Assembly: GCA_033439295.1 (NCBI GenBank)
Contig: JAVTLE010000005.1
Location: forward strand, 3,832,501 to 3,896,500
Reading direction: 5' to 3'
Length of the DNA stretch: 64,000 bases
Source: Deuterostichococcus epilithicus
Taxonomy: Eukaryota > Chlorophyta > Trebouxiophyceae > Prasiolales > Stichococcaceae
Below the pieces are notes generated by a model, which worked only from the letters and a program-made list of their open reading frames with translations, was not told the DNA's origin and searched no databases. Positions 3,501-60,900 of this stretch are shown in pieces (within the stretch, counting starts at the first letter, position 1; each line of letters opens with the position of its first letter). Position numbers and translations under genes: made by a program.

Positions 3501-5173
3501 GTCATGCCGCTGTGCTCCTTTTGTCGAACAGGAGCTGAGTTCGTTTTGGCCACACGTACATACTTCCGGTCGCAGGGGCTGGCGCGAGGTGCAGCGCTAT
3601 CTGGTTGAGGGCCTGCCGCACCTGATCGGCCAGCACGGCCGTGAGTTCGGCTCTGGCGGAGCGCTGCTGGCGGCCGCCGTCGCAGCGGCGCCCATTGCAG
3701 CTGTGCCGGCATTCATTGCCGCGCGGACCGACGGTGGCGGCGGAAGCGGCGATGGTGGCGGAAGCGGCGGTGGCGGCGGCCCCTGCGTCAACCCGCAGGC
3801 GGTTGAGGCACTGCTGACCGAGCTGCAGGCGCTGCCTTTGAGCCAGGTGGGATGCTGTGTCTCACGTTGAGGGCGAACAGTCGTGTCTGAACGATTTCAG
3901 AGGTGAAGATGCTGCTGCTCCATCAGGTGCCAAGCAAAGTGCACGAAGCACTAGATGACGTGCTGCTGACCAAGCTGCGAGCGCTGCCGCCTCTCCAGGC
4001 GAGCATCGACCTTGTCTAGACGAGGTCGAGATTTGGGACATCTCAGCACCCCACTGATGCTGGACGGCGATTTATACGTGGCCGTGCCGCCACTTTGCGA
4101 TGTAGTCTGTTTGTGATTTTACTGCTTCGTTGTATGCATCCTTCGGTTCCCAGCTCGCTTGCAGGACGGCTTGCTCCTGTGATCGGCTCTCATGACGCAA
4201 CGTTTGGCTGTCTCTTCGCAGCAGGTGGTCGGAGGCTGCGCCGCCGCTGCCGCAGGGCTCCGATCTGCCGCTGTGCACGCAATCCTCGGGCACCGACCCT
4301 GCCATCGACCGTGACTCAATTGTGGGCCCTGCCATTCGTAACAATGCCGGGCGGCGCGCTGTCGGCACAGGTACCGAGCCGCCACCATGCGGACAAGGCT
4401 GCTGCTGCGTCTCTGTTGCAGGTGGTCAGAGGCGCGGCGCTGGCGCAAGGCATCAGACAGCCGTCTTGTAGCAAGCTCGCCCATGCACTCGTCGACCCCG
4501 GCGCGAGTATGCGCACCTGCCTGTACCGCAGGTAGTCGGAGGCGCGGCGCCGGCGCAGGGAACCGGGCTGCCACTGCTGACTGCACGGCTGACCTTCATG
4601 CTGCTCCTGGCGCCTGCCGCTACATGGGAAGCAGTTCCGGACCCCCAGGTGCCATCCCACCTCGGAGCTGCCGTTTCTGATGGTGTTGGAGGGAGGCACT
4701 GTTGCAATCGCCAGTCGGGTCTTGCCCCCGGTCAAGGCAGCGGAGGCAGTTCTCCTGGCCGTTACCCTGCGGTGGAAAGAAACGATGCAGCTAGTTGGCT
4801 GCCACTGACATTTGCATGCCGCCTTGCTGACACGGCGCCATATGTCAGCAGAAGTTTGTTTGCTTTGACACATAGCAAAACTTGAATGAAGAACCCCACC
4901 TCCCCGTGTGAGGTGCGGAGGGAGATCGCGGGGGTGACACCAGGCGCTCCTTCCCATCATGAGCGACCCCTTTCCACTTTAACAACCTCCTGCTGCCAGC
5001 AGGTGCGTCGGGAGATCGAAGGATTACTGAATCTGGAGGGCGCATCCATCGTGGCGGCGGAGGCGGCATACCTACGGCAGCAGGCCGCCCAGATTCCGGT
5101 TTTGGAGGCCGAGTCGGCGGCGCTCTCGGCCTGCCGCCATTGCGCGGGTGGCGATGCTGCGGTGGGCGGCTGA
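587..5173 (+). CDS. PCS1: phytochelatin synthase (glutathione gamma-glutamylcysteinyltransferase), 11 exons
   Basis: This enzyme makes phytochelatins from glutathione for cytosolic heavy-metal chelation. Exons, all in consistent phase: 587-662, 789-861, 998-1065, 1241-1347, 1663-1837, 2260-2353, 2730-2778, 3224-3309, 3576-3846, 4532-4648, 5003-5173, giving about 428 residues. The N-terminus [19 protein letters not shown] is typical. The catalytic triad is present: Cys58 in PAFCGLASL, His170 in GHFSPIGGY, Asp188 in [15 protein letters not shown] Gly/Ser-rich linker ([12 protein letters not shown]) precedes the C-terminal PCS_C-like region ([12 protein letters not shown]...TW, then [13 protein letters not shown]). 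ATG 554 would add 11 residues; an in-frame stop lies just upstream of it. Intron 8 needs a GC donor (AACAG|GCGAGT). Decayed copies of the two last exon starts sit in the introns before them, so the C-terminal exon choice is less certain than the catalytic half. Confidence 0.92.
3224..3310 (+). other. phytochelatin synthase exon with CCCTAAA-like acceptor tract and GC donor
   Basis: The acceptor before 3224 is preceded by CCCTAAAACCCTAAAG at 3191-3206, a telomere-like stretch in the position of a polypyrimidine tract. The donor after 3309 is AACAG|GCGAGT. Only this GC donor keeps phase 2 into the exon that begins at 3576 with residues [11 protein letters not shown]. Confidence 0.6.
4222..4562 (+). 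repeat. three degenerate copies of an exon start within phytochelatin synthase
   Basis: The motif CAGGTGGTCGGAGGC followed by a GC-rich GCC/GCG run occurs at 4222, 4419 and 4529. The third copy is used as the real exon ([12 protein letters not shown]...), because only it leads into the conserved [12 protein letters not shown] stretch. The first two would read [11 protein letters not shown] and [10 protein letters not shown] and then break. Spacings are about 197 and 110 bp. They look like tandem duplications spanning a 3' splice site. Confidence 0.75.
4910..5022 (+). repeat. duplicated start of the last phytochelatin synthase exon
   Basis: GAGGTGCGGAGGGAGATCGC at 4910 matches CAGGTGCGTCGGGAGATCGA at 5000, a 90 bp offset. 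The downstream copy is the exon in use, with AG at 5001-5002. The upstream copy lies in the preceding intron and has lost its CAG (GAG instead). Confidence 0.7.
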
Positions 5174-5995
5174 CGAAGGCTGGAATGGCCGAGCCACCAT
5201 GGGCCGTGCGGCGGCTGCAATACAGATGTGGCGGTGTTGGCTGGGGCAGTGAAGTGATGGAACAGTAGCGTCGCTGGCTGAGGGGTGGGGGCTTATCACA
5301 GCGATTCGTCAGCTCAACTTGGAAACGGTGTGATGCGCTCATCTCTGGCGGCTGAGTAAGCGGCAGGTCACTGAATGACTCGACCGTGTGGATGTGGGGC
5401 GATGTGCCCAGAGCTGGCTTTGGACCTTCGAAAAGTGAGCTCGCCATTTTCAAGAATCGCCATTTTCAAGAACCAAGACAACATGCTGCGAGTATGGATA
5501 CACAAAGAAGTCAGCCCCGCTGCGCTATTCACATCCAATGAAAGGCCCCAAAACCTGAATAAGAGTCTGCTCCACATTCAGAACAAGTGCGCAAAATGCT
5601 GATGATCCACCAGGACAAGTGCAAACAACCTGTACCTACACGCCGCGGCTGAGGTCATTGCAAGAAACAAGCAAGCTTGCGACCATCCAACCGAAGCGCA
5701 CACCTGAAGCAGTCAGAAAGCAGACGGGATATTACGGGCGCCACCCTGCCAGCCCATGCGCCACATCAACGCGGCGAATGCGGCCGGCAGCGGTGCCGCC
5801 GGCGGCAGCAGGAAGCGGCCGACAGCCAGCGCAATGGCCACCGCGGCGGCCGCTTCCTGCCTCGTGACCGATGTTCCATCCTTGTGTCAGACTGTGAAGC
5901 GCCCCCTGCCAGATGCAGGATTCAGGCTTGGCGGGGTGCACACCGCACTACAATGGCGGCGGCGGTCCACCGACCGCCGCCGCTACGGATGCGCA
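5174..5995. other. convergent intergenic region, no gene supported
   Basis: This lies between the stop of phytochelatin synthase (+) and the stop of the TMEM45-like gene (-), so it should hold both 3' UTRs and polyadenylation sites. Base composition falls (AT-richer around 5440-5700). Short ORFs here resemble no protein I know. Confidence 0.5.
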
Positions 5996-8955
5996 TCACC
6001 AGTCGTCCGCCGCGACGCGCGACACAATGGAGAATGGTGAGACCCCAGAATACTCTCGGGAACCATCGCCGCTGCCGTCGCCGCCGCCGCGGAGGCACAA
6101 GCCCTCGTCTTCGCCGTCGCTGCGCGGGCTGCTTGGCCGGCTCTCGTTTGCTGAGTCCGACCGCATGTGCATGGTCCCCTGCAACTGCAGCTCGGGGTTG
6201 CTGCCGCCGGTGCAGCTGCTGCCGCCGGTGACGCTGCCGCTGCCTGCCGTCCTGGAGGCATGTGCTGCCGCCTTGCCGCCGGCCACCCTGTCCTTGCCAT
6301 CGCCAGCGGCGCTGCTAAACGCCAGGTCCTGCTGCGTCTGAGGCAGCAGGCTGTAGCTTGTGTTGGCCAGCCGCTGCGATGCCACCACCGCAAGGACATA
6401 GCCTGCAGATGTTGGCAAAGCTGCATCGTCAGCAAAAGTGTGGCTGCACCAGCGTCTCCAGGCGCCGCTTGGCCGGCCGCAGCAACATGTGCAGTCTCCA
6501 TTTGCTTGCAGCAGCTTCGAGCGCAACGTCAGCGTGCATGCGCATCGCCAGTAGAGGCGTGCGGTAGAACGGCAGAGGAGTTCAGACAGTCGAGAGGTAA
6601 TGCGCACAGGCGCAGATGCTGGCAGCGATGGCGACGGCGATCCACACAAAATAGACGGGGGGCATCATGGTCGAGCCTGGGTAGTCAAGTGACCAGCGCG
6701 ACTCCCCTGCAGGGCCACATGCCGAGTCAGTGGCGGGTTCATGAGCTCGCGGCCGGCAGAGCTCTTCGGTCTGAATGGGCACGTGGCAGGGGGAACGACA
6801 GCCCCCTTTGGTCCCGAGGCGGCCTCAGGGCGGGCAGCTGCTCTCCGCGGTGCTGCCAGCAGGAGGTAGAGCCCAGCTGGTGCCGAAACTGCACGTACAC
6901 GGGCTGCAAAGTGCCTGCGGCCTGCTGATAAATGGGTAGAGAGGGAGGAGGGGAGGGAGGGGGTGGGGGGGTGCGCACCACCCCACATGATGCGCGCGAT
7001 CTGGATCAGCCACGCGCCCTGCAGGAGTGCAAAGAAGCCGCGCCCAGCCGCTGCCAGTGGCGACTTCGGATGCCACAGCTCCAGCGCGACGGAGCCCGAG
7101 GCGCCGTAGATGGACAGCACCTGCGCACGAGGTCAAGTCTTTTTTTGGGAATCATGTCATGGACTAGTTTTACGCTGCAGGCGCCAAAGCTCCAGCGCGT
7201 CGGAGCCCAAGGCGTCACAGCTGGACAGCACCTGCACACGATTTCGAGTCTGTCAGCATCATCTCATGGTAGAGTTTGGCGCTTAATGCTGACGTCCGCA
7301 GGCAGGTGCTGACATGCGCCGCCGCGCCGACAGCCCCTTGCAGTGTTCCTCACATCACGCTCGCGAAATTCTTTCGCGAGCCTCAGTGCTGATCGGCCAG
7401 GGAGACACGCACCAGCAGCCCAGGCACGTTGCCTGGGCACCGTTGATGGGTTGAGGCGCTGCGGAGGTCCGCAGCTCGAAGCCAAAGCAGAGGGTCCTCC
7501 CCGAGCGAGACTGGTCATGCCACAGAACTTGCATATCGAGGACGGCTCACCAGCAGCCGGTGCACGACCTGGTCCAGCGGCTCGTGCTTGGTGTGGTTGG
7601 CCATGAGGAAGCCCTCCACAAAGAGCGCCCCCGACAGCGCCAGCTGCGGGTGCGCATGGCGGCATGTCAGGTTTCCCAAGTTTGGCGGGCGCTCAGAGAT
7701 TTGCTGGGGCGCACGTGCGCGCACATCACGGTGTCAGGCGTATGAACACGTGCAGACGAGAATTGTGTTGCGATCCTGCAGCGTGGTGGCCTGGGCCTGT
7801 CCAGAGGTAGTCGGCCCCCCAGCTCAGCAGGCAGCCTGGCAATCCTGCGAGTGCATCGCAATGCTGCCGGGACCAGGCTGCAACGGCAATGTCGTTTCCA
7901 GGACCGTCCCTGGCACACCCAAGGAAAATCCTAAGGGGTAATTCCACTGGCCGCACCTGCTGCAGACCCTGTGGCAGCGGCACCACCATGGCGACCCAGT
8001 CGAGAGCGCCCGCCAGGAAGAAAGCTGGGTAGACACTCGCGTGCTGCCAGTTGTTCAGGTGCGTCATGGCGAAGCGGCCGTCCGGACACGTAAGCGTCCT
8101 GCAAAGTTCACGTTGAAGGATGCCCTCACTCCAGATGCACCACAGCGTCACTCCAGATGCACTACTGCATTGGGACCTGGTCTGACCGTGGTGGTGGGTG
8201 GATGAGGCTGCAGCGTCGCAACCGCGAGGCTTGGCGCTGTTCCTGTGTCTTTGCGCCGCCGGCAGTGGCAAAACATGTCTGTGAATGCGTCTGCTGCCAG
8301 CTTTCCCCAAGGACCAGCAAGGGGGTTGCCAAACAGCATCTGCAGGCAGCTCCCGGTCATGTGGAGACATGGCGCACGCGGACCTCCAGCAGCTGCACAG
8401 CACCCACCTGAACTCGTCGTGGTCGCCGTACAGCTCGATGTAGGTGATGATGAGCGGGCCGAAGAACTTGACGAGTGGCTCCAGCGGCAGGGTGCAGCCC
8501 CGCACGCTCGGCCCGTACCACGGCCTGGCCTCAAAACGCCGGGCGCCGCTGCGGGCATAGCTCCACAGCACCCAAGTTGTCCACCAGGCCCCCCTGTGGT
8601 GTGACGGCAGGGGCGTTCAAAGGTGGCGGTCTGCAGGCTGCACTTCGGGCTGAATGACGCGGCGAGACTGATGCAGGGAGGATCGGAGGCAGCAAGTGCC
8701 AGTCCGCCACCTGGGGTGCTGCTGTCGGGTGCGCAGGTGGCATCGATGCAACAGGAGGCGCCCGCCAGACTGGGGTTCCAGCCGCCGTGCAGAGACACCC
8801 TGATCTGGCAGTGCGGCAGCATGATGTGCCAGGCAAAAACTGTGCAGTGCGCGCGGCACAGCAGCACATGGTGAAGGCTCGGCGCACCAGATGATGAACA
8901 CGATGCCTGGCCCCACATGTCCTTTCCAGGTGCCGTAGGTCCGCCTGCGTATTTT
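5996..8955 (-). CDS. TMEM45/DUF716-family multi-pass membrane protein (start exon not found)
   Basis: I assign this from several conserved segments in the right order on the minus strand. The N-terminal GTWKGHVGPGIVFIIW (about 8890-8940) corresponds to the GHALPG-type start of TMEM45 proteins. PLVKFFGPLIITYIELYG lies at about 8411-8530, MTHLNNWQHASVYPAFFLAG at about 7955-8075, GALFVEGFLMANHTKHEPLD at about 7560-7650, LLQGAWLIQIARIMW at about 6990-7120, and MMPPVYFVWIAVAIAASICA at about 6610-6690. The conserved LxxWQH motif and ExxLFxxH-like helix (here VEGFLMANH) are visible. A low-complexity cytosolic tail rich in Ser/Gly/Asp ends at a TGA at 5996-5998. Function of the family is poorly defined. 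No ATG precedes GTWKGH in frame (a TAA is close upstream), so a further 5' exon must lie above 8955. Confidence 0.8.
6931..6975 (+). repeat. G-rich low-complexity tract in a TMEM45-like intron
   Basis: A run of GGGAGG and GGGGG blocks with little other sequence. On the gene's sense (minus) strand it is a C/T-rich tract, so it may simply be a polypyrimidine-rich intron segment. On the plus strand it could fold as a G-quadruplex. Confidence 0.5.
7050..7235 (-). repeat. duplicated exon start in the TMEM45-like gene
   Basis: The exon beginning at 7120 (minus; CAG|GTGCTGTCCATCTACGGC, residues VLSIYGASGSVALELW) has a decayed upstream copy beginning at 7231 (CAG|GTGCTGTCCAGCTGTGAC...). The offset is 111 bp and includes the acceptor. 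About 70 bases align with scattered substitutions. Confidence 0.8.
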
Positions 8956-8959
8956 CAAA

Positions 8960-10012
8960 GTCGAAAGGCTGGGGAGGCATTATCGGTCAGCAGATACATG
9001 ATGCATGGTGGGACGCCGAGCGCCGCCAGCTGTGCCGCATGTGGCAGCTGCAGGGGAAGGGCAGCCACCTCAGCTAACGTGTGCGTCTCAGCAAAACTCT
9101 CTGAAAGGTGTCTGAAGGTCGCTGCCCGCTCGAAACTGGCAGAAACCCAGCTGTGCCAAACCCTCTCGAAACAGCAATATGGTAGGCTGGTATGCGCGAC
9201 GGAACCCAGCGACCTGCTAGTTCTGGCAGCTTGAGGGGAGCAGTAAGACGGGACTGCTGCGGCCGAGGTGTAGTCAGTGGACAGGCTGCACCTGTCGGCC
9301 TCTGGTACATGCACTTTCCAGGGCGAACGAACCGGCGGGTGCAGCCCGCCCACGAATGCAAAGAGCAGGACAGCGGCAGCTCATACCTTTTTTAGAGCCC
9401 CTATGACTGCCACCTTGCAACAGGAAGCTTGGCGAGGTGGTATCAAGTACGCGCATGGTCAGTCGCTCTCTCGACACTCTCTCGTCACATCCCCCATTTA
9501 ACATGAATGGGGAATACGCACGCCGCGACTCGCACCATATCTCGCGGCCATCGCAGTCGATGGCTGGATGAGACCCGGGCGCATGGTCAGTGGCGTTATC
9601 CGCGTAATGCTGCGCCAGCATTGTTGCACGGCCTGGCAGCTCGCCCCCTGCTCCGGGAAAGGCTGTCCCTTCTTTCCGAGGCGCCGTCTGGCCGTTTTCT
9701 GGCCGTTCGGGCCGAGCTCCTTGTCTGCAGGAGGGTGTATCGTGTATTGCAGATTGGCAGCAGTGGCGGAGATTGCACACATGCCCGTGCAAGCCCAGGT
9801 TACCCAGCTGGAGCACGATGACCAAGTTATGCGAAAGTCTTCGCGTGGCGCAGACTCGCAACCACACCCCCCTCCGAACACTATCTCATCCGCCCTGGAC
9901 CACAGGTTTCCCGAGCTGTCGTCTGCTGGTCTGTTGAGCCAACCGGGGCTGTCAGTGAGCAGCAGCCATTGAGTGCAGCCACTGAGTGACGCCCCGACCC
10001 TTGGGAAATGCA
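8960..10012. other. no confident gene; should contain the TMEM45-like first exon and promoter
   Basis: Between the first recognised TMEM45 exon and the bL28m stop, both on the minus strand. Minus-strand ORFs of up to about 197 codons exist (9274-9867) but have no recognisable domain and look like chance reading frames in GC-rich DNA. Confidence 0.4.
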
Positions 10013-12176: not shown

Positions 12177-12649
12177 AGGTGACGCCGCGCAGTGTGCATC
12201 ATGCCACGCTGCAGGCTGTGACCTGTGTGATCACGCTGGCCATCGTGATGTTCTGACTGGGACTGCCTCAATTCGATGCAGGGAACACAGACGCAGCTGA
12301 GGGCTCGCAGCAGCAGTGGCAGGACTGGGAGGGCGCTGCTCACAGCTTCTCTGTTCTCGAAAGGCAATCGCTGCTTGTGAGACACGGAGAGAATGCAGAA
12401 GCCGCAAAAGTGAACCGTAAGATTTGCACCTGCCGGGTGGCACGTGTTGACAGTGCAGCAGGAGCATTTTAGTCAGCGTTAAGGTGTTGACAGACCACAT
12501 ATGAGAGATCCCATGCGGCATCCTTGATAGGTCAGGAACACCATGCCTTGGTGAAAGTGACCCTGTTGCACAACACCAGGAATCGCAGGCTTGCCACTCA
12601 TGCCGCTGCAGACGGCGCCGCCACAGGCAAATGGCTGCACTTGCGGCGG
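12177..12649. other. convergent intergenic region, nothing recognised
   Basis: Lies between the stop of the small plus-strand gene and the stop of the PTRHD1-like gene. It should hold both 3' UTRs. No coding or repeat signal was seen. Confidence 0.45.
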
Positions 12650-14006
12650 TCAGGCACCCTTGCACAGCTTGAGCTTCTTGAAGTGGTGCGCCACCTCCGA
12701 CTTACGCGCCGGCGCCGTCGCCAATGCCGTTGCAAAGTCCTCCGGCTGCTCCACCCATAGCTTGTGGCCGATGCCGGCTGCCTCCAGCTTGGCCGCTAGG
12801 TTGCGCAGCTGCGTCTCTCCCTTGATCTCCAGCACGACCTGCAGGTTGCTCGGATAACATCAGCGAATCTGCTGGATTCATGCCCAGCTGGGCCGCCAGG
12901 TTGCCCAGCTGCGTCTCTCCCTAGATCTCCGGCACCACCTGCAGGATGCTTTAACATCATCCGAACATCTGCTGCTTCATCCCAGCTGGGCTGCCAGGTT
13001 GCACAGCTGCGGCTTGCCCTTGATCTGCAGCAATGCAGCACGACCTACTGCAGTATCTGCTGACATGAAATTAAATCTACACTGCAAGATGACCCATCAA
13101 TCTGGGACACACACAGCGCCGCACTCCCCCACCCCCCCTCTCCCCCGCGCGCGGTGGAACTACAGCACCACCCGCATTAGGGTGCATTATTGAGCAGGAA
13201 GTTCTGAGCTGCCAGATTTGATGCTCGGTTTCACAACAGACACGTTTGCATATGCAAGCGGCCGTGTACAATCCGCGCGGAAGCCAGGCCGGCGGGGACT
13301 GCCGCTCGTCATCACTGCTGTCAAATGCACACATTGCCCCTGAGCTCTATCAAAACGATCACGGCATGCAGTGTGCGCCGGTACCTTGTGCATCTGGTCC
13401 AAAGCGTCCGGGCCACAGTACAGGCTGGCGGCAGGATCGTTGCGGCTGGCCCACAGCGCTGCCGTCGCCGCATGGCACGCCTGGAGGATGGCACACCGCC
13501 GCCTCGTCTGGTGCTGCCGTCAGCGCATATGAGCGGCAGCATCCGACAAGCAGGTGTCGGACGGCTCGCTGCCGATCCAGCGATAGCATCCAGAGTGCAC
13601 TATTCGCAGCAGGTGCATCTGGTCACAGGCGTGCATTCGACCGCTGTGTGCTTGGGCCTTCTGCACTTTGCATCATCTCAAAGCCTGGCAACGGCGTCAC
13701 TTGGCTGTTGTGCGGCAGCAGTCCTGTGCGAGCACGAGCATCTACAGGGTGCGCACTGTGATCAGCGTGCTTCCAGGTCGGACTCGGAGGACATGTCGAT
13801 GGCTTGCCCACCTGCGCGACGACGCTGCCGAGCGGCCAGCCAAGCTCCGTCCACAGGTCACGCCGCAGCACCACGTACTGAAGCAGCACGTCATCAGGCG
13901 GTGCAGAGGCGTCACCCTGCGCCGTGGCTATCGAGCTGGCAGCCTTGGACGGCTCGCGCATGTCCAGTGCACCAAAACATGCCTCATCGGGTAGGCTGCA
14001 GCTCAT
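12650..14006 (-). CDS. PTRHD1: PTRHD1-type peptidyl-tRNA hydrolase (PTH2 superfamily), 3 exons
   Basis: Member of the PTH2-fold group; PTH2 enzymes release peptides from stalled peptidyl-tRNA. Minus-strand exons 14006-13812, 13480-13385 and 12838-12650, all phase 0, give 159 residues. Conserved segments: LLQYVVLRRDLWTELGWPLG and SVVAQ (about 41-65), ACHAATAALW (66-75), ALDQMHK, VVLEIKGETQLRNLAAKLEA, GIGHKLWVEQPED and KSEVAHHFKKLKLCKG. The AQACHA-like motif and HKLWVEQPE stretch are typical of PTRHD1. Length equals human PTRHD1 within about 20 residues. ATG 14006 is the nearest in-frame start to the conserved core; the frame stays open upstream, so a longer N-terminus is possible. Intron 2 holds decayed copies of exon 3's start. 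Confidence 0.92.
12789..13060 (-). repeat. three tandem degenerate copies of the PTRHD1 exon 3 start
   Basis: On the plus strand the block GGTTGCGCAGCTGCGTCTCT, then CCCTTGATCTCC and CTGCAG, recurs at about 12798, 12899 and 12996, an offset of about 98-101 bp. The lowest-coordinate copy is the real exon (VVLEIKGETQLRN). The other two lie in the preceding intron and carry substitutions, including a TAG-like change in the middle copy. Each retains a CTGCAG acceptor. Confidence 0.85.
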
Positions 14007-23681: not shown

Positions 23682-26600
23682 TCATCCGGACAGCCCGATC
23701 ATGGACTGCCGAATCTTGCCGGTGGTGCGCATGTACTCCCCGCTGAGGCGCACGCGAGCGACTGCCTCCTGCTCCCCCCGCAGCCGCCGCCCCTCCTCCA
23801 GCAGCGCCTCCAGGTTGACGTGGTCCGTGCTGAACACTGGCAGCCGGTTCCTGGAGGCAAATCACCCGAAGGTTCCCACGAGACCATATTGACAGCTTAT
23901 ATTGTGGGACGACGCTAGAAGGTGGCAGCAGCGCTACCGGGTTCACATGGTCGGTGCCTAAACCCTGCCAAACGTCCTTGTCAAACCTGAACACCGGCCG
24001 ACAGTCACTGAGGGCGGCACAGCCATGTCAGAGGCCAACTTGGACTTTGTATCCTCTGGCCCCGCCGATCAGGAGAGTGAGCAGCGTCTAGCAGCAGGGC
24101 ATGTCGGCGGGCTGACTGTCTGCGAAAGGTGTTGAGGCACGGTTCTGGGCAATTCCCACGTAATAACCGTGTACAGCAATCATATATCTTCGAAAGCCTC
24201 TTGGAGACGCAAGGTTGCAACAGCTGCGGCTCAGTTCTGGCCAGGTCAGGTGGAGGGCACGAAAAGCTAGAAAAGAGAGTCGGTGACATGAAAAAGGTCA
24301 AAGCAGCCCGCACTTGTTCAGCAGCCGCTTGCCGAGCTCCGCCAGGTTGGAGTCCTCAGCCATGAGGTCCGCCCCAATGTCGTCCTTGATCCATCGCCGG
24401 ATTTGATTGTCATAGGTGCCCGCCCTGCGGCACAGTGGGGCGACAGGAGTTTTGACAGGAGTTCTGCATCGCTGGGGTAAGGCTCAGACGAGAGTGCTCT
24501 GACTCGGAGCCTTGTCGCTGAGCAAATTTGCGCGACAGCATATGCATGGCTGCTGCGGCGTCTCCTGCGCAATCACCAGCAGGTGAGTGCGCAGCAGGCG
24601 GCCATCGAAGCCCTTTACTTGCAACGGTTCGACTGAAAACGGTCAGCACCTGATAGCGCCAAAGAAGTCGAGCGGCTGGTCCGGGAATTCGTCCAGTAGG
24701 GTCTCCAGGTCGCTGGTGCTCACCTCGTCATCCTGCCGGATCGATGCCACGGCTCAGCGTCACGGTTGGTGGTCAGCAACTGGTTGGATTCGCGGCTGCA
24801 CAGTTTGAACCCTCGGTGTCTTCTGTCGAAACTCGGCGGCATGGCTCGGCCGCCTCGGCAGCCGCACGGCGGCATGCCAGACACCACACATGTACACAGC
24901 TGCACGCCAAGACGCCGCTCTGCTCGGCATGCGCTAGACGAGCGATGTGTCACTCGTACAGCAGCCGGCCTGCGAGCGCTTGCTTTGACAGGACTACGAT
25001 GCAGCATCAGTCCCACCTTATACATCTGCGTGAGGATGGCTAGCAAGTCCCCCCGGTCGGGCTTCCAGTAGAACTTCTCCATGCGGCCGCTGCGGATGAG
25101 CGGCGCGTACAGCGTACTGAAGTCGTTGCCTGCAGTCACAGAGGAGTTTCGTTTGCCCAACGATCTGGCGTCCTCATCTGCTACATGTGCTGGCGCATTG
25201 CAGGATTGGCGACTGGCTTCGCCAGGGATTTGGCATCGTCCTCTTGCGGGAACACCTGCGCTGCCACATGAGGGCAGGAAGACACCTGAACCAGGCGCGT
25301 ACTGGCTCGACAAGTGAGACCATGTCTGCACATTGATTTCGTTTGGTTGTTTGGACGTGATTCGATCCAGACACTACCTATGAGGAGATCAATCTATTGA
25401 CAAGAAACAATCTTGCAAGATGAGAAACAGAATCCTAAACCTAGGATCGTAGCGGCATGTATCCGCAGACCCTAAGGAGCACCGCGCACAGAGCAATGCG
25501 TGCGCCGCACCTGTCACGATGATTGGGATCCGGCGAATAAAATCCTGTTCGCGCCAGGAGCCGCCGCCAGAGACTTGGGTAGGGGCGTCGCAAATGTTCA
25601 TCAGAGTTCCCGTCACATTCTGCATTGATTGCACATGGAATGGTTGAAAACATGTTTCATACGCTGCAGACGCTCCAACGACTTGAGAGTAGCAGCATCG
25701 GCCTGTCACCAAAAAGCCTCAGAAGCACTTGTCCAAGCTCGTCAAGCGTTCCAGCAGCCACCTTGCAGCCGCCGTCTAGCAGACTTATTTGGTGGAGCCT
25801 CAGCCCAACCTGGTTGTTGACGGTGGTCTGCGTCGCCTTGAAGTGGCCCAGCCCCGCGTCCAGGTCGTTGATGAGCAGGCAGCTGAGCTTTCCGCGTACA
25901 CGCGACAACTCGCTCGCCCGCCGGTAGCGCTCCCTACGGCGCCGGCCAGCACATCGAATGGTGGGTCGTCACAACAGGCGTACCAATCATGCTACGCGAC
26001 CGCTTATCACGACATAATCCGCTGCTCGTAGCTGACGGCACGGCTGACAGCATCATAGCAATCATGCCTACTGCCAGCACGACGGTCGCCGCAGTGGCAA
26101 CGCGGGGCGCCACAACACTCGAAACTCGCCACCAGGCCTCAACAACGGATGTGCTTGGCAAACACTCCACCTGATCAGCCGGCCGGGGGTGCCTGCCCAC
26201 TCGTGCTCCAGCTCGCCAGCGCTCATGATGATGGGCTCCACCCTGCAGCAGAGTTGCGGTTCCCCCCTTGCGCCTCAGGCGTGGCAGCAGTGGCGAGATC
26301 TACCTCTTGAAAGCCCTCGACAGCTGCAGGGCTTGCGGTTGGCTCCGTCTGTACGTCTGTGTACAAATTTAGCGCTAGCGTGTCCGCATGGCTGCTTCGA
26401 GGGACAGCATTTCGAGCCACCGCGGGGGCCCAAAGCTACCCCAGCGGCGAGGGTGGCGGCCAGGGCCACACCGATGGCTGGCGCAATGCATGACAACATA
26501 TCTGCAGCGCTTGTGTCACACGCTCACCCGAGCTTCTTGAAGGCCAGCTCCGTCTGGAACGTCTTGCCGCAGCCCTTGGGCCCCCAGATGCCCTGCGAAG

Positions 26601-50727: not shown

Positions 50728-53700
50728 ATGCGGGCGGCCGCACCGGCGCGGCGGCAGCAGCCGCAGCTGCGCGGCGCCTTGGCGCGCGTGGCGGCGGTGG
50801 CGGCGCTGGTGGCGGCAGCGTCGGTGATATCCTTCCAGCTGGGCTCCGGGCGGCTGGCGGGCCTAGTGCCGCTGCCGGCGCCGCCGGTGTGCGCCCAGCC
50901 GCTGCTCAACGCGACGGCGGCAATCGCCGGCGGCCGTCCCAACAAGCCACAGCAGGTGGGCGTGGTGCATCATAAAAACCCTATTTCAGATTCCCAACAG
51001 AGTCTGAAAGGCGTGGCCCACCATGCAGAAGCATGCTCTGGCGCGCAAGGCTGGCAAATGCGATATGCTATCGTCACTGCGTCCAGCGGCAGCGCTGCTG
51101 CATCAAGTGCCAACACAGCCTCCCCATCCCAGACAGCCTGCCCAGACTCCCGACACCCGCCCTTGCAGGAGGGCGACCTGCAGGCCAGCTTCCAGCTGCC
51201 GGGCGATACCCTGGCGGAGCGCACCTTTGTGGCGCAGCTGGAGGCGCCAGCGCGCTTCGTCGCGTCGCCGTCCATCCTGGCGCTGCCGTCGGGGCGGCTG
51301 CTGGTGCTGTACGAGAAGTGAGGCGCCCCCAGCAGCAAAACGCCCGGCCGCCGTCTCCATCGCCTGGCGACAAGCCAGCAGCACGACCAGCGTGCTTGCG
51401 TGTCATCGCCTGATGCCACGACCAAAGCACCATGCCGCAGCCGTGCAAGGGAGCATGGCCCTAGAAACCCCTACAACGCTACAGTGCTTGCTCCGCACAG
51501 GCAGGCGGCGTGGGGCGTGCACGCGCCGGAGACATCCACCAAGGTGGTCATGGCGTCGGACGACGGCGGCGCCAGCTGGCAGCACGTCGGCTCGCCGCGG
51601 CCGCTGCACTGGCCGTCCATCTTCCAGTGCGCCTCGGGTGGGTGCGCGACGCTGCATGGTGTTTAGCAATGAGGCGTTTGATAGCAAGACACCATACGCA
51701 GAAAGCCTTGCGCGCCGTTGCCGGTTGAGGATGACAGTGCCTCCCCGCTCCTCCCTTCACAGGCTTCATAGGCGTTTACATCTGTCGAGGCTCCCGTGTG
51801 CCTGCTCCAGGTGTGTACATCATCGGGGTGGAGCGCCACTTCTCGGCGGACAACAACATCGTCGTGACCCGCATGCTGGACGAGGGCGGAGCACGCTGGA
51901 GCGTCCCCGCTCGCGTCACCACGGTATGTTATCTGATCTTCAGGCAGGTCAAGCTTTCGGTCGGTGTGGTGGTTGCGTTGCCTGAGTGAGGCGCGCGCTG
52001 GAGCCCTATACCCTAAGACCTAAGGCCTCTCCACCGCTGGTCAGGGTCGTTCCAGAACTGCTAGAGGAGTCTGGCACAAGTCTCTGAAGGTCAGCGCGCA
52101 CGGGAGCCCCCCTGGGACGCACTCTCGATCAGGCAGGTTGGATTTGGCAGCTTGGCTGTCAGCAGGGAACAGTCGATTGAGACCTCTGGGCGGGCGCCGC
52201 GGCAAGGGGTGTCCGGATTCTGGGCGGCGGAGCTCAGGACTCTGCGGCCCTGCGAGTGCCTCGTTGACGTGCGGCCCGGCCGCAGTAGTGGCCGCCGCAG
52301 CAGCAGAGACAGCAGGAGGACCCGCGCTGCCTGGGCTCTGCGCGCAGCGCTGGTCGGTGTCCTTGTGTGTGGGGAGCCGAGAAGTGGGGTTGTTGCCGCT
52401 GTTGTGGGGGCTTCCGCTGGAGTGCGTTGACTGCTTGCTGGACTCGGCATCCATCAGCGCAGGGTCAGCACAGCGGACCGCAGTCACGCCAGACTACACA
52501 TGTAGGCTCAGCCCCGATCTAACTCAAAACGCTGCTGGGCCACCGCTGACTGCAGGGGCTGAGCGCGGTGATGGCTAACACGGGAGTGGACGTGTCGTGG
52601 GGGCGCGTCACCAAGCCTTTTGAGATCATCCCTGTCAAAGGGAACCCCGTCAAGGTGCTGGGCAAAGTTTCCTGCCAAGGTTCCAGCCAAGGAGCCAATT
52701 TTCGCAACAAAGTCTGCATGCTGCAGTGGCCCCTAGGCTGACGGCAGGCCGTGCAGCTCACCTGCTTGCGCGGCTGAACAACCAGCAGTCGACTCGATCG
52801 TGCCCGGGCCTGCGCCTGCGGCTGCAGCCAGCCATGCGGTGCCGCCCTGCGCCGTGGTGCAACCTGCCCCCATCATCGCCGGCAGCCGCGGCTGTCCAGC
52901 AGGCCAGCTTTCAAAGAGGTCGCTGCACTCCACAGTGGCTGCCATTTAGCCGGCTTGCGCCCCCGCCCGGTGTTGACCTGCTGAGCGTTTCTGCGGCGCA
53001 GGCGTCAAACATCATGCACCAGGCGGAGATCAAGATCAGCATGGGGCCTGACCGTTTCTCGTGGACCAACCCGCCGCGTGTCAATCTCACAGTGGAGGTG
53101 CGTCCTCACTCCAGCGTGCAAGCGGCCCATCAGCTTGTTTGGACAAGCAGATCTTCTGGACCTGTTCTGGCTTTTGCTAGTAACTTCAGCACAAGGGCAC
53201 AGGCCCCATGTGCTCTCCCCCACACATCGGGCTGTGTGTGCGGATCAGGGTCCTGCCGCATGCCCAGCAGCACAGGCCGGCCGACGTCTTGAGACGGCGC
53301 TTTCTGGTGCTGTCCCCACTGGGCCACAGGCAGCCACAGCTCGCCTGTGCTTAGCAGCTGTCACTCAGATGCGGGTCCGCCTTTCTGGCTGCACGTGGGT
53401 CCTGTCAATGTGCCTTTCAAGGTGCTCGTGCAGGACTCCCGGGGTTTCCCTGTGAACACGCTGGTGAAGGTGGACTTCGAGCCGCACCCACTGTTCTTCC
53501 GCATCCTGGCGGTCGACCACTCCCACAACTTCCTGCAGGTGTGCAGCTGCTACCTCTTGCGTTGCAGTTGGCGCACAAGCACACAGCTCCTGTTCGAAGC
53601 AGCAGAGGCTGATTTTGACGCAGCTGATGTTGATCTCCACCCAGGCGCGACTCTGCTTCCGAGAAGCACGACCAGCGATGGTCTCCTTCAGCCGCTCAAG

Positions 53701-56700
53701 CCTTCCGCTGCGCTACAGCAGTGACTTTGGGATCTCATCCGACTCGCCACACATTTATCTAAAAGCTAACTCACACAACGGTCCTGGGCCGTGTCATGCC
53801 CAGCTCGGGAGATTCCCTTCCTGCTGCAATGCACTCGTCCTGATGGCATGACCCGTCTCTGCGGCGCAGCTGCGGCTGGAGCGCTTCACGCTGTACTGGA
53901 CCGGCGGCGATGTGGTCATCGAGGAGGGTGCGACGCTGCGGGTGGGCTCGGGGGCGCATATCTACGGCGGCGTCGACTGGGTGTCCATGGGGATGTCCGC
54001 TGACGAGACACAGGATCTGACGCGGCCCGAGGTGCGGGCGCTTCCCAGCACCTCTTCATGCCGCGAATGCCGAGGAAGTTTGCACGAAGTCTGGAGGGCG
54101 TCTGCTTTCCGTCTCTGCATGCTATGCGATAACTCAGGATGCGCCAGACATGCAGTTCTCAGCCAGCAGCTACCCATGAGCCGCTACTGCTGTTTGCGCT
54201 GTAGGCGTGGACGTTCACGGAGCCGCTGGGCAACCCTGCCAGCGTAAGGGTACAGGACATGGCGGCCTTGTTCGACGTCGCCTTCCGGCCCGACTATGTC
54301 GTCCGCAAGTCCATCATCGGCTTCGACCACGATTTCATCCACGACACCGCAGCGGCGCTGGACGCCGGCTTCGGCAGCCTGTACTGGATGGAGGGCGTCG
54401 CCGTGCGGCTGCAGGTAGTGGACACAGCGTTCCAGGGGTCCAGCTCTTGAACCCAGGCTGCGCTGCAATCGTCGTGGCGCTGGCGGCTGGCTTGGCGCAC
54501 CCTTTTCCACGACCCTGGTTGTAAGTGTGCCCCTGCGGCCGCAATGCCTGATGTCCTGATGCTGAACGATTCTAGTGATGAGCAGATGAGCGACCCCGGC
54601 ACTCGGACCCTGCAGGACCGGCGGGGCGCCAGCGGCAAGCTGCTGGTCACGCTGCGCGTCAACAACGACCTGTTCTGCGACATGGCGGCGCTAGTGGCGC
54701 TCGACGATAGCGCGCTGCGGGAGCAGCAATTGCAGGCGCCTGCTCCAAGCGGCCTGGCGGTGGCCATCGCGGCGGCTGCCGATCCTGCTGCCGTCGCACA
54801 CCGCCGGCGGCGCCGGCGGCGGGCGCTGCAGCGGGTGCCACCGGGTAAACATTCTGGGTTCTGGTGGCGGAGGCGAGCACGGCGGCGCTTGCAGCAGGAG
54901 ATGCAGCAGCGGGATGGTGGAAATAGTGGATCAGCTGCCAAGGCGGGCGCCACAGCTGCAGAGGCGGCCGCCTCTGAGCTGCAGCAGCGGCAGAGCGCCG
55001 CCGACGCGGCGCTGCCGCTGCTGTCTGCGGCAGCTGCAGACGCCGCGGCGGCGCAGCAGGCGCAGCCGCAGGCGCTGACGGATTCTGCTGAGGATGTCGT
55101 GCCTGCGCCGGCTGCGACGCCGCGCCTCGAGCGAGAGTTCCTGCGCTTCAGGTGGGGTGCAAGAGTGGCCCTGGCCTGGTTGTGAGCGGCGATCGGCATC
55201 CCTGAACAGTGGGAATGTGCACGTTCGTGCCAGGTGCCAGAGAGGTCCGAGCGGCGGGAGTCCTGTCACTGAGCTTGCATTGCTGGCTGCGGGTGCAGCG
55301 AGCGTCTGCCCTCCAGGCCAAGCCCTCTGTGTCTTCTTCATCATCAAGCGCAAAGAGGCTGGCAGCTGCGCACCCTGACAGAGTCCGCAACCCCTGTCTA
55401 GGAACGTGCCTGGCCTGGCCATCGGGCACCCAGCGATCCTGTACGACAACACGACCGACCTGTACTGGATGGCGTCCAACATGAACCGCGACTCCACGCG
55501 GCGCTGGCGACAGCCGTGGCAGAAGGACCGCAAGAAGCTGCACATCACCCCCTTCTCCAAATGCGAGGTGGGCCGCGCGGCAGCACCCTCACCTCCGAGC
55601 AGCTTACTCCTGCAGCCCCTCGTCGAGTAATGATGGATAAGTGAGTGATGGCCTGCCGGCGTGCGGGAAGTTTCCTCACCGCCGCCACTCAGCCTCTGAA
55701 GTCCAGTCTGCAATGGCAGGTGGACCGCACGACCACACGGTCGTGCTTCAGCAGCGATGTCATCAACTGCTGGCCCGCACACGTTTTTACGTGCAGACCC
55801 TGTCGATGCTGAGGCTAGGATCTCTGGTTCAAAGAATCTTAGATCGACCGCACGACCGTTGGGCTGTACGGCAGTGGCAACGCCATCAGCTTGTGGCCCG
55901 CCGACGTGCTGTCAGTCTGCCAGTAACTGCCCGCCAACCTCTTGTACCACCTTGCAGGTGGACCGCACGACCATGGGCCTGTACTACAGCGGCAATGCCA
56001 TCGACTGGTGGCCTGCCGGCGTGCTGGACTACCACCTGGACTTTGCGGAGCACTTCACGTACCCCCACATGGCGGTGTCGGGCGATGACCTGCTCGTCGT
56101 CATGCGTGCGACGGCGCCACCGCTTAACGATACTGCGACCAGCAAGTGGTACGTTCTCAGGATCAGAAACTTGCAATTCTGTTGGCGGTCTCGTTGCAGG
56201 AACCGTAACTAATGCGTTGCGAGACAGCGCTTCAATCAATGGTGCCTCCAGTTGTTCAAGCTGGTTTGAGGGGTTTGCATGACGGCTGAGGCGCCGAGAC
56301 AGCTGCATTGGAACAGCAGCGCGGTGGCCGCACTCACCACCGCGCCGCTAGTTCACCAACGCCACTGCGACCACATCAAGGTCTGGTGCGAGGGCTCGGG
56401 GGCGTTTGAGACTGTCAGGAACTCTTTGACGCCCGTTGGTGGTGGTGGTGGTGGGGGGGCAAACGGCGCCGCGGCCAGCACGTGGCGCGCCACTGTGATG
56501 CGCTGCTGGTCGTGCACCATTGATTGGGTTCGGCTCATTGGCAAGGCTGGCGCCTTTGTGCGCCGCTCCGCACGACCCCCGCACGACCCTCTGCCGTCTG
56601 CCAACCGGGTTTGTGCCTGTTTTGGCTTCAAACCCATACTTTTGGTGTCCCCTCTCTGCGCAGGTACAACAATCACAACAGCAATGCCGTCAGCTTTCAT

Positions 56701-56796
56701 CGGGTGGTGGACTTCCGGCGCTATGCCAACGTTGCATGGGCGACGTACGAGGGCGAGTACACTCAGCGGCCCCGCGTGGTGTCCTCCGTGAACTGA
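50728..56796 (+). CDS. membrane-anchored BNR/Asp-box sialidase-like protein, many exons
   Basis: Beta-propeller protein of the exo-alpha-sialidase-like superfamily, probably in the secretory route. ATG 50728 begins an N-terminal anchor (residues about 20-38, ARVAAVAALVAAASVISFQL). Resolved exons: 50728-50955, 51169-51317 (SPSILALPSGRLLVLYEK), 51501-51637 (VVMASDDGGASWQHVG, an SxDxGxxW Asp-box; HWPSIFQCASG), 51811-51923 (VYIIGVERHFSADNNIVVTR). Later segments follow the same family: WTFTEPLGNP, YWMEGVAVRLQ, KLLVTLRVNND, AIGHPAILYDNTTDLYWMAS, DWWPAGVLDYHLDFAEHFTY with PHMAVSGDDLLVVMRAT, and the final NNHNSNAVSFHRVVDFRRYA ending at a TGA at 56794-56796. Between blades there is extra coding sequence at 52570-53540 (DVSWGRVTKPFEIIPVK; PFKVLVQDSRGFPVN) and a low-complexity Ala/Gln/Arg insertion at 54760-55130. 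Substrate unknown; green algae are not known for sialic acid. Confidence 0.75.
55720..56030 (+). repeat. three copies of an exon start in the sialidase-like gene
   Basis: AGGTGGACCGCACGACCA recurs at 55718, as AGATCGACCGCACGACCG at 55841, and at 55956 in the real exon (VDRTTMGLYYSGNAIDWWPA). Offsets are 123 and 115 bp. Each copy runs on for about 60 aligned bases (the copies read ...SSDVINCWPA and GLYGSGNAISLWPAD). The upstream two lie in the intron. Confidence 0.85.
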
Positions 56797-57932
56797 TGTT
56801 CTCCTGGGAATTGTTGGAAGGCTAGTGAGAGCTGTGGCCCTTCAGCGGCGGTTCACCCCTTGAGTGGCAAATCACCCCTTCAGTGGCACTCCACCTTCAA
56901 CGCTGCCAAGGAGCGGTGCAATGGGTGCTAGCGCCGCAGGCAGCCGCTGGCGGTTGCGCGCACAGCTGCGGCCGGCCACACATTGTGCAATGCCCAGCTC
57001 AACCAGTTTGCCCCGACGGCACTGGTTGAGGTGCCGGGAGGCGGCCATATACGCATGGCATGAAGGGTTGCGGCAGCTGCCGCGCGGCTTGGGACGTGTC
57101 AGAGATGAATGAAATAATGGTGAAGCAAGTTCAGTGAAGCTTTGCTGTTAGGTATGTTTTGCAGCAGAAGTAGAACACGCCAACTTCAGTGTCGAAGCAT
57201 GTGAAGCAGACATCGATGACTTGAACAGTGCGTCGTCAATTAATCAAGGTGTCCTGCGCCTAGCAGCTGCACTCTGGATGCGTATGCCGTGCCCTGCTAC
57301 GCAACTGCTGCTGCTGCATGCGCTACTGAATCGATGACGTATCAATCTCAGCTTACCGTCCGTCGGTTAAATACTGGCTGGAGGTGCTACCAGCAGCTGG
57401 TAGTATGTCACGTGCAGTTGACGTATTGCAGGGTATACTCGAATGGAGGTCGCGACTCACGTGCAACATTACATAAGACCTGCAAACTGTCAACAGACAC
57501 CACGTTTCTTGCGGCTTCGCGACGCAATACAGAACGCTATTCAGCCAGTGGCTGGTCCGGATTCGCAACGCAGCCATCTCGCACGCCTGATAGGGCCTGT
57601 GAATGGGTAAGTACTCCAACAAGGTACACATCGGTGTAGCGGGGGCTTGAAGCCTGCCCTCGAAAGCGTTTGCGTGACAAATACGCAAGCTTCGACGCGC
57701 ACGACGGAGACACGCATTGACATTATGTGCTCTGCATACTGGCTGAGCTAGCGATCTCACACACGTCAGACCGGCAGCGGCCGCAGCGTGGCCAGCAGCG
57801 TGACAGCATCAGCTTCCAAGCTTGTCAGACTCGGGCAGCGAACAGCCGGCACCGCGTGGCCGGCTGCCGTTGCACTGCATGCGGCGCCCCAGCTGCCGCT
57901 AGGTGCGCAGCCGCACTCGGTGGGGTGGCGTG
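56797..57932. other. intergenic region between sialidase-like gene and TFIIB
   Basis: 3' UTR of the sialidase-like gene and promoter of TFIIB. A small internal repeat (CCCCTTGAGTGGCAAATCAC and CCCCTTCAGTGGCACTCCAC) lies at about 56857-56896. No coding signal recognised. Confidence 0.45.
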
Positions 57933-60900
57933 ATGAGCATTGCCGCGCAGCATGCTGCGGTGGCGACGCGCCAGAAGTACGAGCAGAAATGCCCGGACTG
58001 CGGCGGCAGCGACTTCGTTGAGGACTTTTCTGCCGGCGACCTCATCTGCAGAGTGCGCTCACCAGACGCCGGCGTCCATGTCGCACTGCAAGTTTCATGC
58101 CCGGCTGAGGCAGGCTGACTGCGTCACGGCCAGGATTACCAAGTTGTTTGATGCCAAAGCATCAAAATGCGTGGCTATGCCAACATCCAAAGTAGACTGT
58201 GATTTGCTCCAAGCAGAGATGACGGACACCTGACCTGCCATGCACATCTGCGCCTCCCATGTCGCAGGAGTGTGGGCTGGTGGTGGAGGCCCACGCCATT
58301 GACGTTCGCTCCGAATGGCGCACCTTCAGCGACTCGGTACGTTGCTGACCCCCAGGCTGGAACGTGACTGTGCCATTGACAACATGGTGGCCTTGGCCCA
58401 GGCAGCAATGGACCTGCGGCTGTGCGAGGTGCATGCATGCCGCCAAGGGGGAACGCCAGGCTGCTGCATGCACAGGCGCCATGGGGCGCTGGCGGAGGCT
58501 GTCACCGCCTGCATCTTTGCCCTTGTTCAATCTCGGCCAGACGAGTCTGCCCACCAGTGCAGACGCAGCAGACTCTGGCCAGGCCAGTGTGCCGGCCAAC
58601 ACAGCCTGCTGCTCGCACTGCTCCTGACTGCTCCCACCTGGAGCCTCATTTCAGGGTGTCATGTTGAAAAACAGGACAAGCAGACCGTGGACCCCAACCG
58701 GGTGGGCGGCCCCACCAACGCGCTGCTGGGCGAAAACTCGCTGAGCACCACCATTGGCGCCGCCGCCGGGGCCGCCTTGAACGACCCGGCATCCAGAAAC
58801 CTCCAGCGCCTGGCCGCCAGGCGGGTCATTGCAAAACCTAAACCTTCAGATGGCGGTTCAGCAGCACCCTGAACCTGCACAGCTGTGGGCAGAAGAGGCT
58901 GGGGGACTGGTCTAGGGCATTTTGGGCATCTGGCGGGGCTGACCCGGCATGTGGCAGACGCAAGAGTCGCTGTAGGCATGCCCAAAGGCCGTCCGCGCCA
59001 GCTGCCACCTGCAAGTCCTGCTCGTCAGCACCCTGCCTGACCAGCGGCCGTGCCCTGCTTCCCGCAGAAGCGGCGGCGGCGGCGGCGAGAAGAACCTGTC
59101 GGCCGCCTTCCGCGGCATCGGCTCCATTTGCGACCGCCTGGGGCTGGTGCGCGTCATCCGCGACCGCGCCTGCGAGCTGTACAAGCAGGTGGGCGTGCAT
59201 TGCCCGTGAAATGCACTGTATCAAGGGAACCGCTCAGTCATTTCGCCATGTGCCGAAGGACCGTGGACCTAGGTGACCATGCTCCTTGGCGGCGCCTGCA
59301 GGTTGCTCAACATTTGGGCGATTATTCGATCTACTCCAATACCAATTGCGTCTGCAGGCCGCCAGGATTGCATAATAGGACACAAGGCATGCTGATTCAC
59401 TCAAGCAGGCCAATGCTGTGCAGAGGGTGGGATGCCCATGCAGTGGCGGCCACTGCTGCGCAGGTCGTCGACACAGGCGGCGTCATGGGGCAGGCAACGG
59501 CGCGACGGTGATATCTGCGAGGCAGCAGACGTTGAGCAACGCTCCCATGCATGACCTGTCGTGCTGATGCACTCCCGCCATGCTCAGGTGACGGACACTG
59601 GCGGCGTGAAGGGGCGGCAGGCGACGGCGATGCACGCGGCGGTGGTGTATATGGCCTGCCGCCTGGAGCACAACCCCCGCACCTTCAAGGAGATCCTCGC
59701 GGGCGCGCCCGGCACCTCCAAGGTATTAATCCCTAGGAAATTATGGAATGAGTACTAGACTCAAAGGCGGCGACTCGGACTTCTTGTTCAGCGCTGGGTC
59801 CCGCCGGCAAGGCACAGGGTAGACTGGTTCACAGTTTGTGCTCGTGAGGAGCACTGATGTCGTGCTGTCGTGCGCCTTATCGACTTTGGTAGCCTGGGAC
59901 AGAAACGGCATGCGGGCGCTCTGTGAGAACCGCACCAGTGGAGCTGCAGGAGGGCATCAGGTGCGCACACGTTGCACATCTTGTGGTACCAACGTCAATT
60001 CTACAACCTGAACCCCCGACCTCAAACCTCAAACCTCAAGATGTCGCTATGTGCAGGTGGACATTGGGCGGGCATACACGGCCATCCAGCGGGAGCTGGG
60101 CCAGGTCGTGGACGCAATCCACCCGGCAGACTATGTGCGCCGATTTTGCAACCGCCTCGGCCTGGCGCAGTCCGACGTCAAGGTCCGAGCCGTGCCAGTG
60201 GCCTGCGGCAGAGTGACTCGCGTGCCCCGGCAGTCTTGCGGTTGTTGCTGTCGCTGCGAGAGCGTGCAGCTGCGTGCTTGGTGGGCACTGCCGCTGCCGC
60301 GCAGCAGCAGCTGCCAGCGGACAGCAGGCCAAGCGCTCTGCCGCAGCCTGCTGCTGCGACTGCCGCGCCGCAGCAGGCGCGAGCTCTGCCGAGCTCCTGG
60401 CAAGGTGTCGACGGTGTCGGGTGGTGATTCTAAACCCTAAACCCTAACCGATTCCAGGTGGCGACGGAGGTGGCGGAGAAGGCGTGCCCGCGCGCCGGGC
60501 AGCGCGAGAACGGCGTCAGCAAGCCCTGGGACGGGCGCAGCCCCACGTCCATCGCCGCGGCGCTCATCTTCCTGGTCACCAGCCTGCCCAAGGTGCCGCT
60601 GCTTGGCTGTCGCGCCCGCCTTGCACCATGCAGGATGCTCCGCGGAGAGAGCTGCTCTTCATCTCTGAGGAGCCATTGCGATGCCCGCCGCCGCCACTGT
60701 TACTGCAGCGCCACCCCCGCCCTGCGTCTGGTAGCTCATCGCCTGCTGGCTCCAGAACTCGGCACTCTCAGTTCGCAGGCATCCAAGAAAAAAGGAAATG
60801 AAAGGGAAACAAGCATCCATTTGGCACCTGATCCGCAGGCGTCTCAGCACCCGCGCGCGCACGAGGTGGCGGCCGCGACCGGAGTCGCGGTCGTCACCAT

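What the first reader, a model, noticed from the sequence alone, without database searches (positions are those of the whole stretch)
4222..59640. Recurrent decayed tandem copies of exon starts just upstream of 3' splice sites
In at least six genes the intron before an exon holds one or two degenerate copies of that exon's first 25-70 bases, usually with the AG acceptor. Cases: phytochelatin synthase (4222/4419/4529 and 4910/5000), TMEM45-like (7231/7120), PTRHD1 (about 12996/12899/12798), RuBisCO-activase-like (about 23960/23850), sialidase-like (55718/55841/55956) and TFIIB (59461/59585). Most offsets are about 90-125 bp. Apart from the activase case, the duplicated segment has exon sequence starting with GT right after AG, i.e. 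an AGGT proto-splice site. Tandem duplication of an AGGT segment is a proposed route to new introns. Here the copies sit at the 3' end of longer introns, as if a process repeatedly duplicates DNA across acceptors. In the resolved cases the copy nearest the downstream exon is the one in use. This may be a genome-wide mutational habit of this alga.
Basis: seen in the sequence. Interest (0 to 1): 0.75.

Follow-up and report, generated by a model that had tools for sequence, protein, structure and literature searches.

The report
Introns lengthened by splice-site-spanning tandem duplications
In this green alga, short DNA stretches spanning the border between an exon and an intron seem to have been doubled in place again and again, with splicing hiding the extra copy, so introns grow in steps of roughly 100 bases while the protein stays the same.

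Summary
The repeats are real and not confined to the window. Copy-bearing introns are longer, median 429 versus 217 bp. Best reading: tandem duplications across splice sites (acceptor offsets average 105 bp) are hidden by splicing; the spare copy decays neutrally and the intron stays longer. Frame supports this: exon-internal tandem loci have periods divisible by three in 12 of 12, exon-intron ones in 8 of 26. The AGGT intron-gain reading fails: copies lie inside long introns, and GT-starting exons are not enriched outside the window (4 of 15 versus 73 of 383). Open puzzle: boundary loci outnumber intron-only ones 26 to 4, though a uniform process predicts about 0.7-1.1 to 1. No RNA, sister species or whole genome was available, and one 50-kb stretch shows none at the same threshold (0 of 110).

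The parts
4532..4648 (+). Phytochelatin synthase: exon copy judged to be in use ([39 protein letters not shown])
   Evidence: my reading of frame and AG/GT borders; resemblance to the C-terminal part of plant enzymes is recalled, not tested. PF05023 supports the gene but not this exon. The gene finder read this spot otherwise, taking copy 4422-4531 as exon
4422..4471 (+). copy 1 of that exon start, with AG
   Evidence: (110-bp offset)
4225..4274 (+). copy 2 of that exon start, with AG
   Evidence: 307-bp offset
3963..3988 (+). donor-type copy of the upstream exon end (3811-3836)
   Evidence: 152-bp offset
7183..7251 (-). TMEM45-like (DUF716) intron: copy of intron tail plus exon start; exon in use is 6979-7120
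   Evidence: 111-bp offset, 84% identity
12884..12938 (-). PTRHD1 (PTH2) intron: nearest copy of exon start (exon in use 12650-12838); TAG in the exon's frame
   Evidence: 49 of 55 identical
12982..13036 (-). PTRHD1 intron: second copy
   Evidence: 44 of 55 identical
23926..23970 (-). RuBisCO-activase-like intron: copy of exon start (exon in use 23754-23850); acceptor AG not kept
   Evidence: 127-128-bp offset
55843..55913 (+). sialidase-like intron: nearest copy of exon start (exon in use 55958-56148)
   Evidence: 115-bp offset, 55 of 71 identical
55720..55790 (+). sialidase-like intron: second copy
   Evidence: 49 of 71 identical
55643..55668 (+). sialidase-like intron: partial third intronic copy
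   Evidence: 360-bp offset, 23 of 26 identical
59457..59502 (+). TFIIB intron (59189-59587): copy of exon start (exon in use from 59588), acceptor AG kept
   Evidence: 124-bp offset

Best explanation
Tandem DNA duplications, averaging about 105 bp at acceptors, recur across exon-intron borders. The unit carries the last few dozen bases of the intron plus the first few dozen of the exon (or exon end plus intron start at donors). After an acceptor duplication the spliceosome joins to the distal acceptor, after a donor duplication to the proximal donor; the mRNA is unchanged and the spare copy becomes intron. It then decays at about the neutral rate, leaving the intron longer, and the step can repeat at the same border, so the copy nearest the exon is usually the youngest. 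Shown: copies, offsets, neutral-like decay, length effect, frame contrast, serial order in 3 of the 4 arrays compared. Inferred: use of the distal site (homology, not RNA), DNA-level origin (repair of staggered nicks is my guess at the source), and why borders are hit more than intron interiors.
For: 20 of 516 acceptor and 11 of 516 donor cases against 0.48 and 0.37 expected from length-matched mismatched introns; reverse-complement control 2 and 0. Other pairings near zero in the first 449 introns: exon tail against preceding intron 0 of 229, exon head against following intron 1 of 221. Median intron 429 versus 217 bp; 0 of 303 below 250 bp, 24 of 125 at 300-600 bp. Exon-internal tandem loci keep frame in 12 of 12, exon-intron ones in 8 of 26. 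Mismatch at codon positions 1, 2, 3: 72 of 437, 78 of 436, 110 of 431 (p 0.0016); a neutral copy against an exon free only at third positions would, by my estimate, look like this. Copy acceptors kept as AG in 14 of 20, neutral expectation 12.8-14.4. In 3 of 4 arrays compared the nearest copy is most like the exon: PTRHD1 0.89/0.80, sialidase-like 0.77/0.69, C1 25121 0.85/0.74. TFIIB aligns to human TFIIB without insertion at the junction. A search with the TMEM45 unit found only itself in the genome.
Against: No RNA evidence; gene models are home-made and disagree with my reading of the phytochelatin-synthase case. The fourth array (PCS) does not show the order (0.73/0.83). A process blind to position should leave many intron-only duplications: 23-33 expected for 26 boundary loci, 4 found, so survivorship alone does not explain the pattern. 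Young copies are rare: 2 of 25 above 0.90 identity, 7.8-10.1 expected for steady production. One stretch has none (0 of 110). Donor offsets are longer (mean 168 versus 105, p 0.001), which the simple model does not predict. In the narrower scan, 6 of 7 exon-exon offsets were multiples of three; the seventh (127, C3 9767) is a donor-type repeat whose spare copy the gene finder called an exon, and merged it into a boundary locus.
Confidence: 0.75

Rival explanations
1. Ordinary tandem duplication, uniform along the genome, seen at borders only because exon-internal ones are purged and intron-only ones decay out of sight sooner.
For: Exon-internal survivors are in frame in 12 of 12 loci; tandem repeats also occur in intergenic DNA (3 loci).
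Against: With decay and opportunity simulated, boundary to intron-only should be about 0.73 (score 18, units 70-150 bp) or 0.8-1.1 after fitting ages; observed 26 to 4 (score 19, offsets 25-400), or 25 to 5 if a GC-rich intronic array is moved (p 6e-7 and 5e-6). The test assumes equal neutral rates, and loci cluster in genes (p 0.0016), so the p values are too small.
Confidence: 0.25
2. AGGT intron gain (Rogers/Hellsten model): duplicated exonic AGGT segments turned into introns.
For: GT after AG in 8 of 20 acceptor cases versus 97 of 496 other introns (p 0.03).
Against: The excess comes from the window on which the idea was formed: outside it 4 of 15 versus 73 of 383 (p 0.33; or 61 of 273 if the C5 stretch is left out). 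Offsets (49-139 bp) equal intron length (293-1556 bp) in 0 of 20 cases, and in 16 of 20 the alignment runs across the acceptor into or up to intron tail.
Confidence: 0.05
3. The copies are functional: decoy or alternative acceptors whose use yields unproductive mRNA.
For: The 14 kept copy acceptors score 4.5 on average, near used ones (5.6) and far above random intronic AG (-0.1); reading on from the copy site would shift frame or meet a stop in 19 of 20, or 13 of the 14 that keep AG.
Against: AG retention and scores match neutral decay (P 0.11-0.31); the codon-position pattern fits an unconstrained copy.
Confidence: 0.12
4. Selection for longer introns or for spare splice sites fixes boundary duplications.
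For: Boundary excess over intron-only loci; clustering in some genes (7 of 28 and 4 of 13 introns).
Against: No sign that spare sites are maintained.
Confidence: 0.12

Closest known systems
Potato RdRp gene, tandem duplication crossing an intron-exon border (Ma, Lan and Niu 2016, PMC4974935; abstract, introduction and results section read)
   Same: A tandem unit made of intron 3' side plus exon 5' side, bringing its own acceptor; that paper also notes an 83-bp duplication inside the first intron
   Different: There an exon is added and a new intron with a recruited donor arises, in one case. Here the upstream copy seems to be spliced out, the intron just grows, the pattern recurs in tens of introns, and donors are hit too
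AGGT tandem-duplication intron gain (Rogers 1989; Hellsten 2011; seen only as described in PMC4974935 and in passages of PMC3443670)
   Same: Tandem duplication hidden by splicing
   Different: No AGGT requirement and no new intron seen here
Drosophila novel intron positions by intron sliding or tandem duplication (PMC2891723, passages seen)
   Same: Tandem duplication with splicing or NMD as the filter
   Different: Concerns intron position and proto-splice sites within exons
Small tandem duplications from break repair (PMC8355091, passages seen)
   Same: Head-to-tail duplications; [quoted passage not shown]
   Different: The passages seen say nothing of exon-intron borders
Direct repeats near intron borders (Rogers and Bendich 2025, PMC11782384; abstract and first part of results read)
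   Same: Direct repeats at splice borders
   Different: 4-30 bp repeats pairing the two ends of an intron, not exon starts copied about 105 bp upstream

Membership tests
AGGT tandem-duplication intron gain | AGGT in the duplicated segment | tested here: not met
   GT after AG in 8 of 20 acceptor cases; outside the window 4 of 15 against 73 of 383 others
AGGT tandem-duplication intron gain | copies bound the intron (offset equals intron length) | tested here: not met
   0 of 20: offsets 49-139, introns 293-1556 bp
AGGT tandem-duplication intron gain | intron absent from close relatives | not testable with these tools
   no relative genome held
Boundary-crossing tandem duplication (potato RdRp type) | unit contains intron end plus exon start | tested here: met
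The TMEM45 unit aligns over 105 bp, 56 of it intron
Boundary-crossing tandem duplication (potato RdRp type) | extra exon kept in mRNA and a new intron formed | tested here: inconclusive
   direct extension from the copy site would shift frame or meet a stop in 19 of 20, and TFIIB homology has no insertion; no RNA, and an extra exon with a recruited donor was not tested
Introner elements | similar copies dispersed in the genome | tested here: not met
   one unit tested (7050-7260): 1 match in the genome, itself; the tool scores only its best candidates
Break-repair tandem duplications | head-to-tail copies whose spacing equals unit length | tested here: inconclusive
   clear for PTRHD1 (154-bp alignment at 100-bp offset); decay hides unit ends in most others, and junction microhomology was not measured

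The most novel reading that the evidence does not exclude
Tandem duplication in this alga is targeted to exon-intron borders, about ten times more often than to intron interiors, by a process tied to transcription, splicing or exon chromatin, and this step-by-step ratchet is a main source of its longer introns.
Probability: 0.35. Interest if true: 0.8.

Novelty: new variant of a known kind. Interest (0 to 1): 0.55.

Why it matters
To my knowledge, how introns lengthen without mobile elements is poorly documented. Here visible copies sit in 24 of 125 introns of 300-600 bp, and in 12 of 28 of 400-500 bp outside one stretch, which suggests that splice-hidden duplication is a major route. It also poses a direct test for splice-site choice: upstream acceptors that still score well seem to be passed over in favour of similar ones about 105 bp further on.

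Tried and rejected
Chance and low complexity: rejected by offset controls, reverse-complement and mismatched-intron controls. Mobile element: the one unit tested has no second genomic match. Selection to destroy or keep the spare acceptor: neither seen. GC-rich exon starts as the trigger: exon-head GC 0.670 in cases, 0.681 in other exons after introns over 250 bp. Detection bias as the cause of the boundary excess: simulated two ways, not enough. A first gene-finder run gave 1152 introns with many tiny exons and was discarded; a stricter one was used. A plasmid DNA search gave nothing; PTRHD1 had no solved relative at E 0.001. Ten literature searches listed no paper that, by its title or the start of its abstract, describes systematic intron growth by boundary-spanning duplication; only the top listings were seen, and most subscription papers are not held. 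Gao and Lynch 2009 was not read.

Rows dropped before counts: genes under 300 coding bases (522 introns predicted, 516 used); repeats with simple-repeat index 0.6 or more in the diagonal scans. The 25 identities used were typed from lengths and scores: of its 27 exon-intron rows, two C5 rows at score 18 and the second PTRHD1 row were left out, and C3 9767 was added. Offsets were typed, those. One 'boundary' locus (C6 10176) is mostly an intronic array; counts are given both ways. The 49-bp case (C1 8625) is weak. In C5, two weak exon-intron diagonals at score 18 and one donor-side match (C5 23836, an exon-internal 51-bp repeat) fall below or outside the thresholds used for the '0 of 110'.
Full report
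What was checked. The window is C5:3832501-3896500 of a 46.8-Mb, 21-contig genome. All six genes hold copies; the second phytochelatin-synthase case (4910/5000) is too short to count.

Sample and gene models. A small HMM gene finder was trained on these and the window. It settled on donor CAG|GTGCG-like and acceptor YGCAG|G motifs, and on the full set gave 522 introns with a median of 222.5 bp, of which 516 were used. Pfam supports phytochelatin synthase, DUF716 (TMEM45-like), PTH2, RuBisCO-activase and TFIIB; two pieces of the sialidase-like gene had no Pfam hit at E 0.01. No RNA supports these models.

Excess over chance. Exon start against its own preceding intron: 20 of 516 at score 19 or more, 0.48 expected from length-matched mismatched introns, 2 on the reverse complement. 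Exon end against its own following intron: 11 of 516, 0.37 expected, 0 reversed. In the first 449 introns, exon ends against preceding introns gave 0 of 229 and exon starts against following introns 1 of 221. A scan that does not use gene models to find repeats gave 46 diagonals at offsets 50-200, against 0 at 1000-1150, 1 at 2000-2150 and 3 at 400-550.

Shape. Acceptor-type offsets average 105 bp (SD 22, n 20), donor-type 168 bp (n 11), p 0.001. By stretch, acceptor/donor cases: window 5/1 of 118, C1 11/6 of 219, C5 0/0 of 110, C3 2/3 of 43, C6 2/1 of 26. The absence in C5 is not explained by intron length (P 0.0018). Cases cluster by gene: 7 of 28 and 4 of 13 introns in two gene models (p 0.0016; 0.017 without C5).

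Length effect. Copy-bearing introns have a median of 429 bp, others 217 bp. None of 303 introns under 250 bp has a copy at this threshold; 24 of 125 between 300 and 600 bp do; outside the C5 stretch 12 of 28 between 400 and 500 bp do. Part of this follows from needing room for a copy.

Splicing hides the copy. Independent tandem loci with both copies in exons have periods divisible by three in 12 of 12; exon-intron loci in 8 of 26, close to one third. In the narrower scan it was 6 of 7; the seventh is a donor-type repeat (C3 9767) whose spare copy the gene finder called an exon. Duplications that are translated must keep frame; those across a border need not. Reading on from the copy site would shift the frame or meet a stop in 19 of 20 cases, 13 of the 14 that keep AG. 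TFIIB aligns to human TFIIB without insertion at the junction, and 114 residues cover positions 3-115 of the PTH2 profile.

The spare copy decays neutrally. Mismatch by codon position, acceptor and donor cases pooled, is 72 of 437, 78 of 436 and 110 of 431 (p 0.0016): by my reading the first two positions reflect mainly the copy's decay, the third adds synonymous change in the exon. Copy acceptors remain AG in 14 of 20 (neutral expectation 12.8-14.4) and the mean score of those kept, 4.5, lies within the neutral range. In three of the four multi-copy arrays compared the nearest copy is closest to the exon, as serial duplication predicts; the phytochelatin-synthase array is the exception.

What does not fit a simple story. 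Random placement of units and neutral decay predict about 0.73 boundary loci per intron-only locus, or 0.8-1.1 after fitting observed ages. Observed: 26 boundary, 4 intron-only, 12 exon-only, 3 intergenic, 2 exon-intergenic; moving one intronic array gives 25 to 5 (p 5e-6; too small, since loci cluster). The simulations and the counts differ slightly in score cut-off and offset range. Young copies are scarce (2 of 25 above 0.90 identity against 7.8-10.1 expected). Either borders are mutational targets, or such duplications were favoured, or they came in a past burst; these data do not decide. Exon-start GC is not raised.

Against the AGGT reading. GT follows AG in 8 of 20 acceptor cases and 97 of 496 others (p 0.03), but outside the window, where the idea was not formed, in 4 of 15 against 73 of 383 (p 0.33). 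In none of the 20 does the copy pair bound its intron. The nearest precedent found is the potato RdRp border-crossing duplication (PMC4974935), where the copy is described as giving a new intron instead of a longer one.

Verdict. A real, recurrent pattern: splice-hidden tandem duplication across acceptors and donors that lengthens introns. It is a new variant of a known kind; the boundary preference is the surprising part and rests on 254 kb of home-made annotation.

Noticed in passing
L012-L016 (C5:1000001-1050000): No boundary copies in 110 introns at the threshold used (P 0.0018); exon GC 0.706 and AG|GT acceptors 0.108 against 0.672 and 0.237 in C1: a region of different gene character.
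   Followed up: partly
L004:5753-5908 (C1 25753/25831): A 78-bp, in-frame duplication at an acceptor that the gene finder reads as a longer exon: possibly a used upstream copy.
   Followed up: partly
L017:6291 to L018:1883: One gene model with copies in 4 of 13 introns; one intron (9114-9657) has both a donor-type and an acceptor-type copy.
   Followed up: partly
L020:176-537: GC-rich intronic array with a period of about 87 bp.
   Followed up: no
L006:570-719 (C1 40570/40647): A young-looking intron-only duplication: 77-bp period, 92% identity over 73 bp.
   Followed up: no
window 50728-56796: The gene called sialidase-like has no Pfam match at E 0.01 in the two pieces tested; the name is unverified.
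   Followed up: partly
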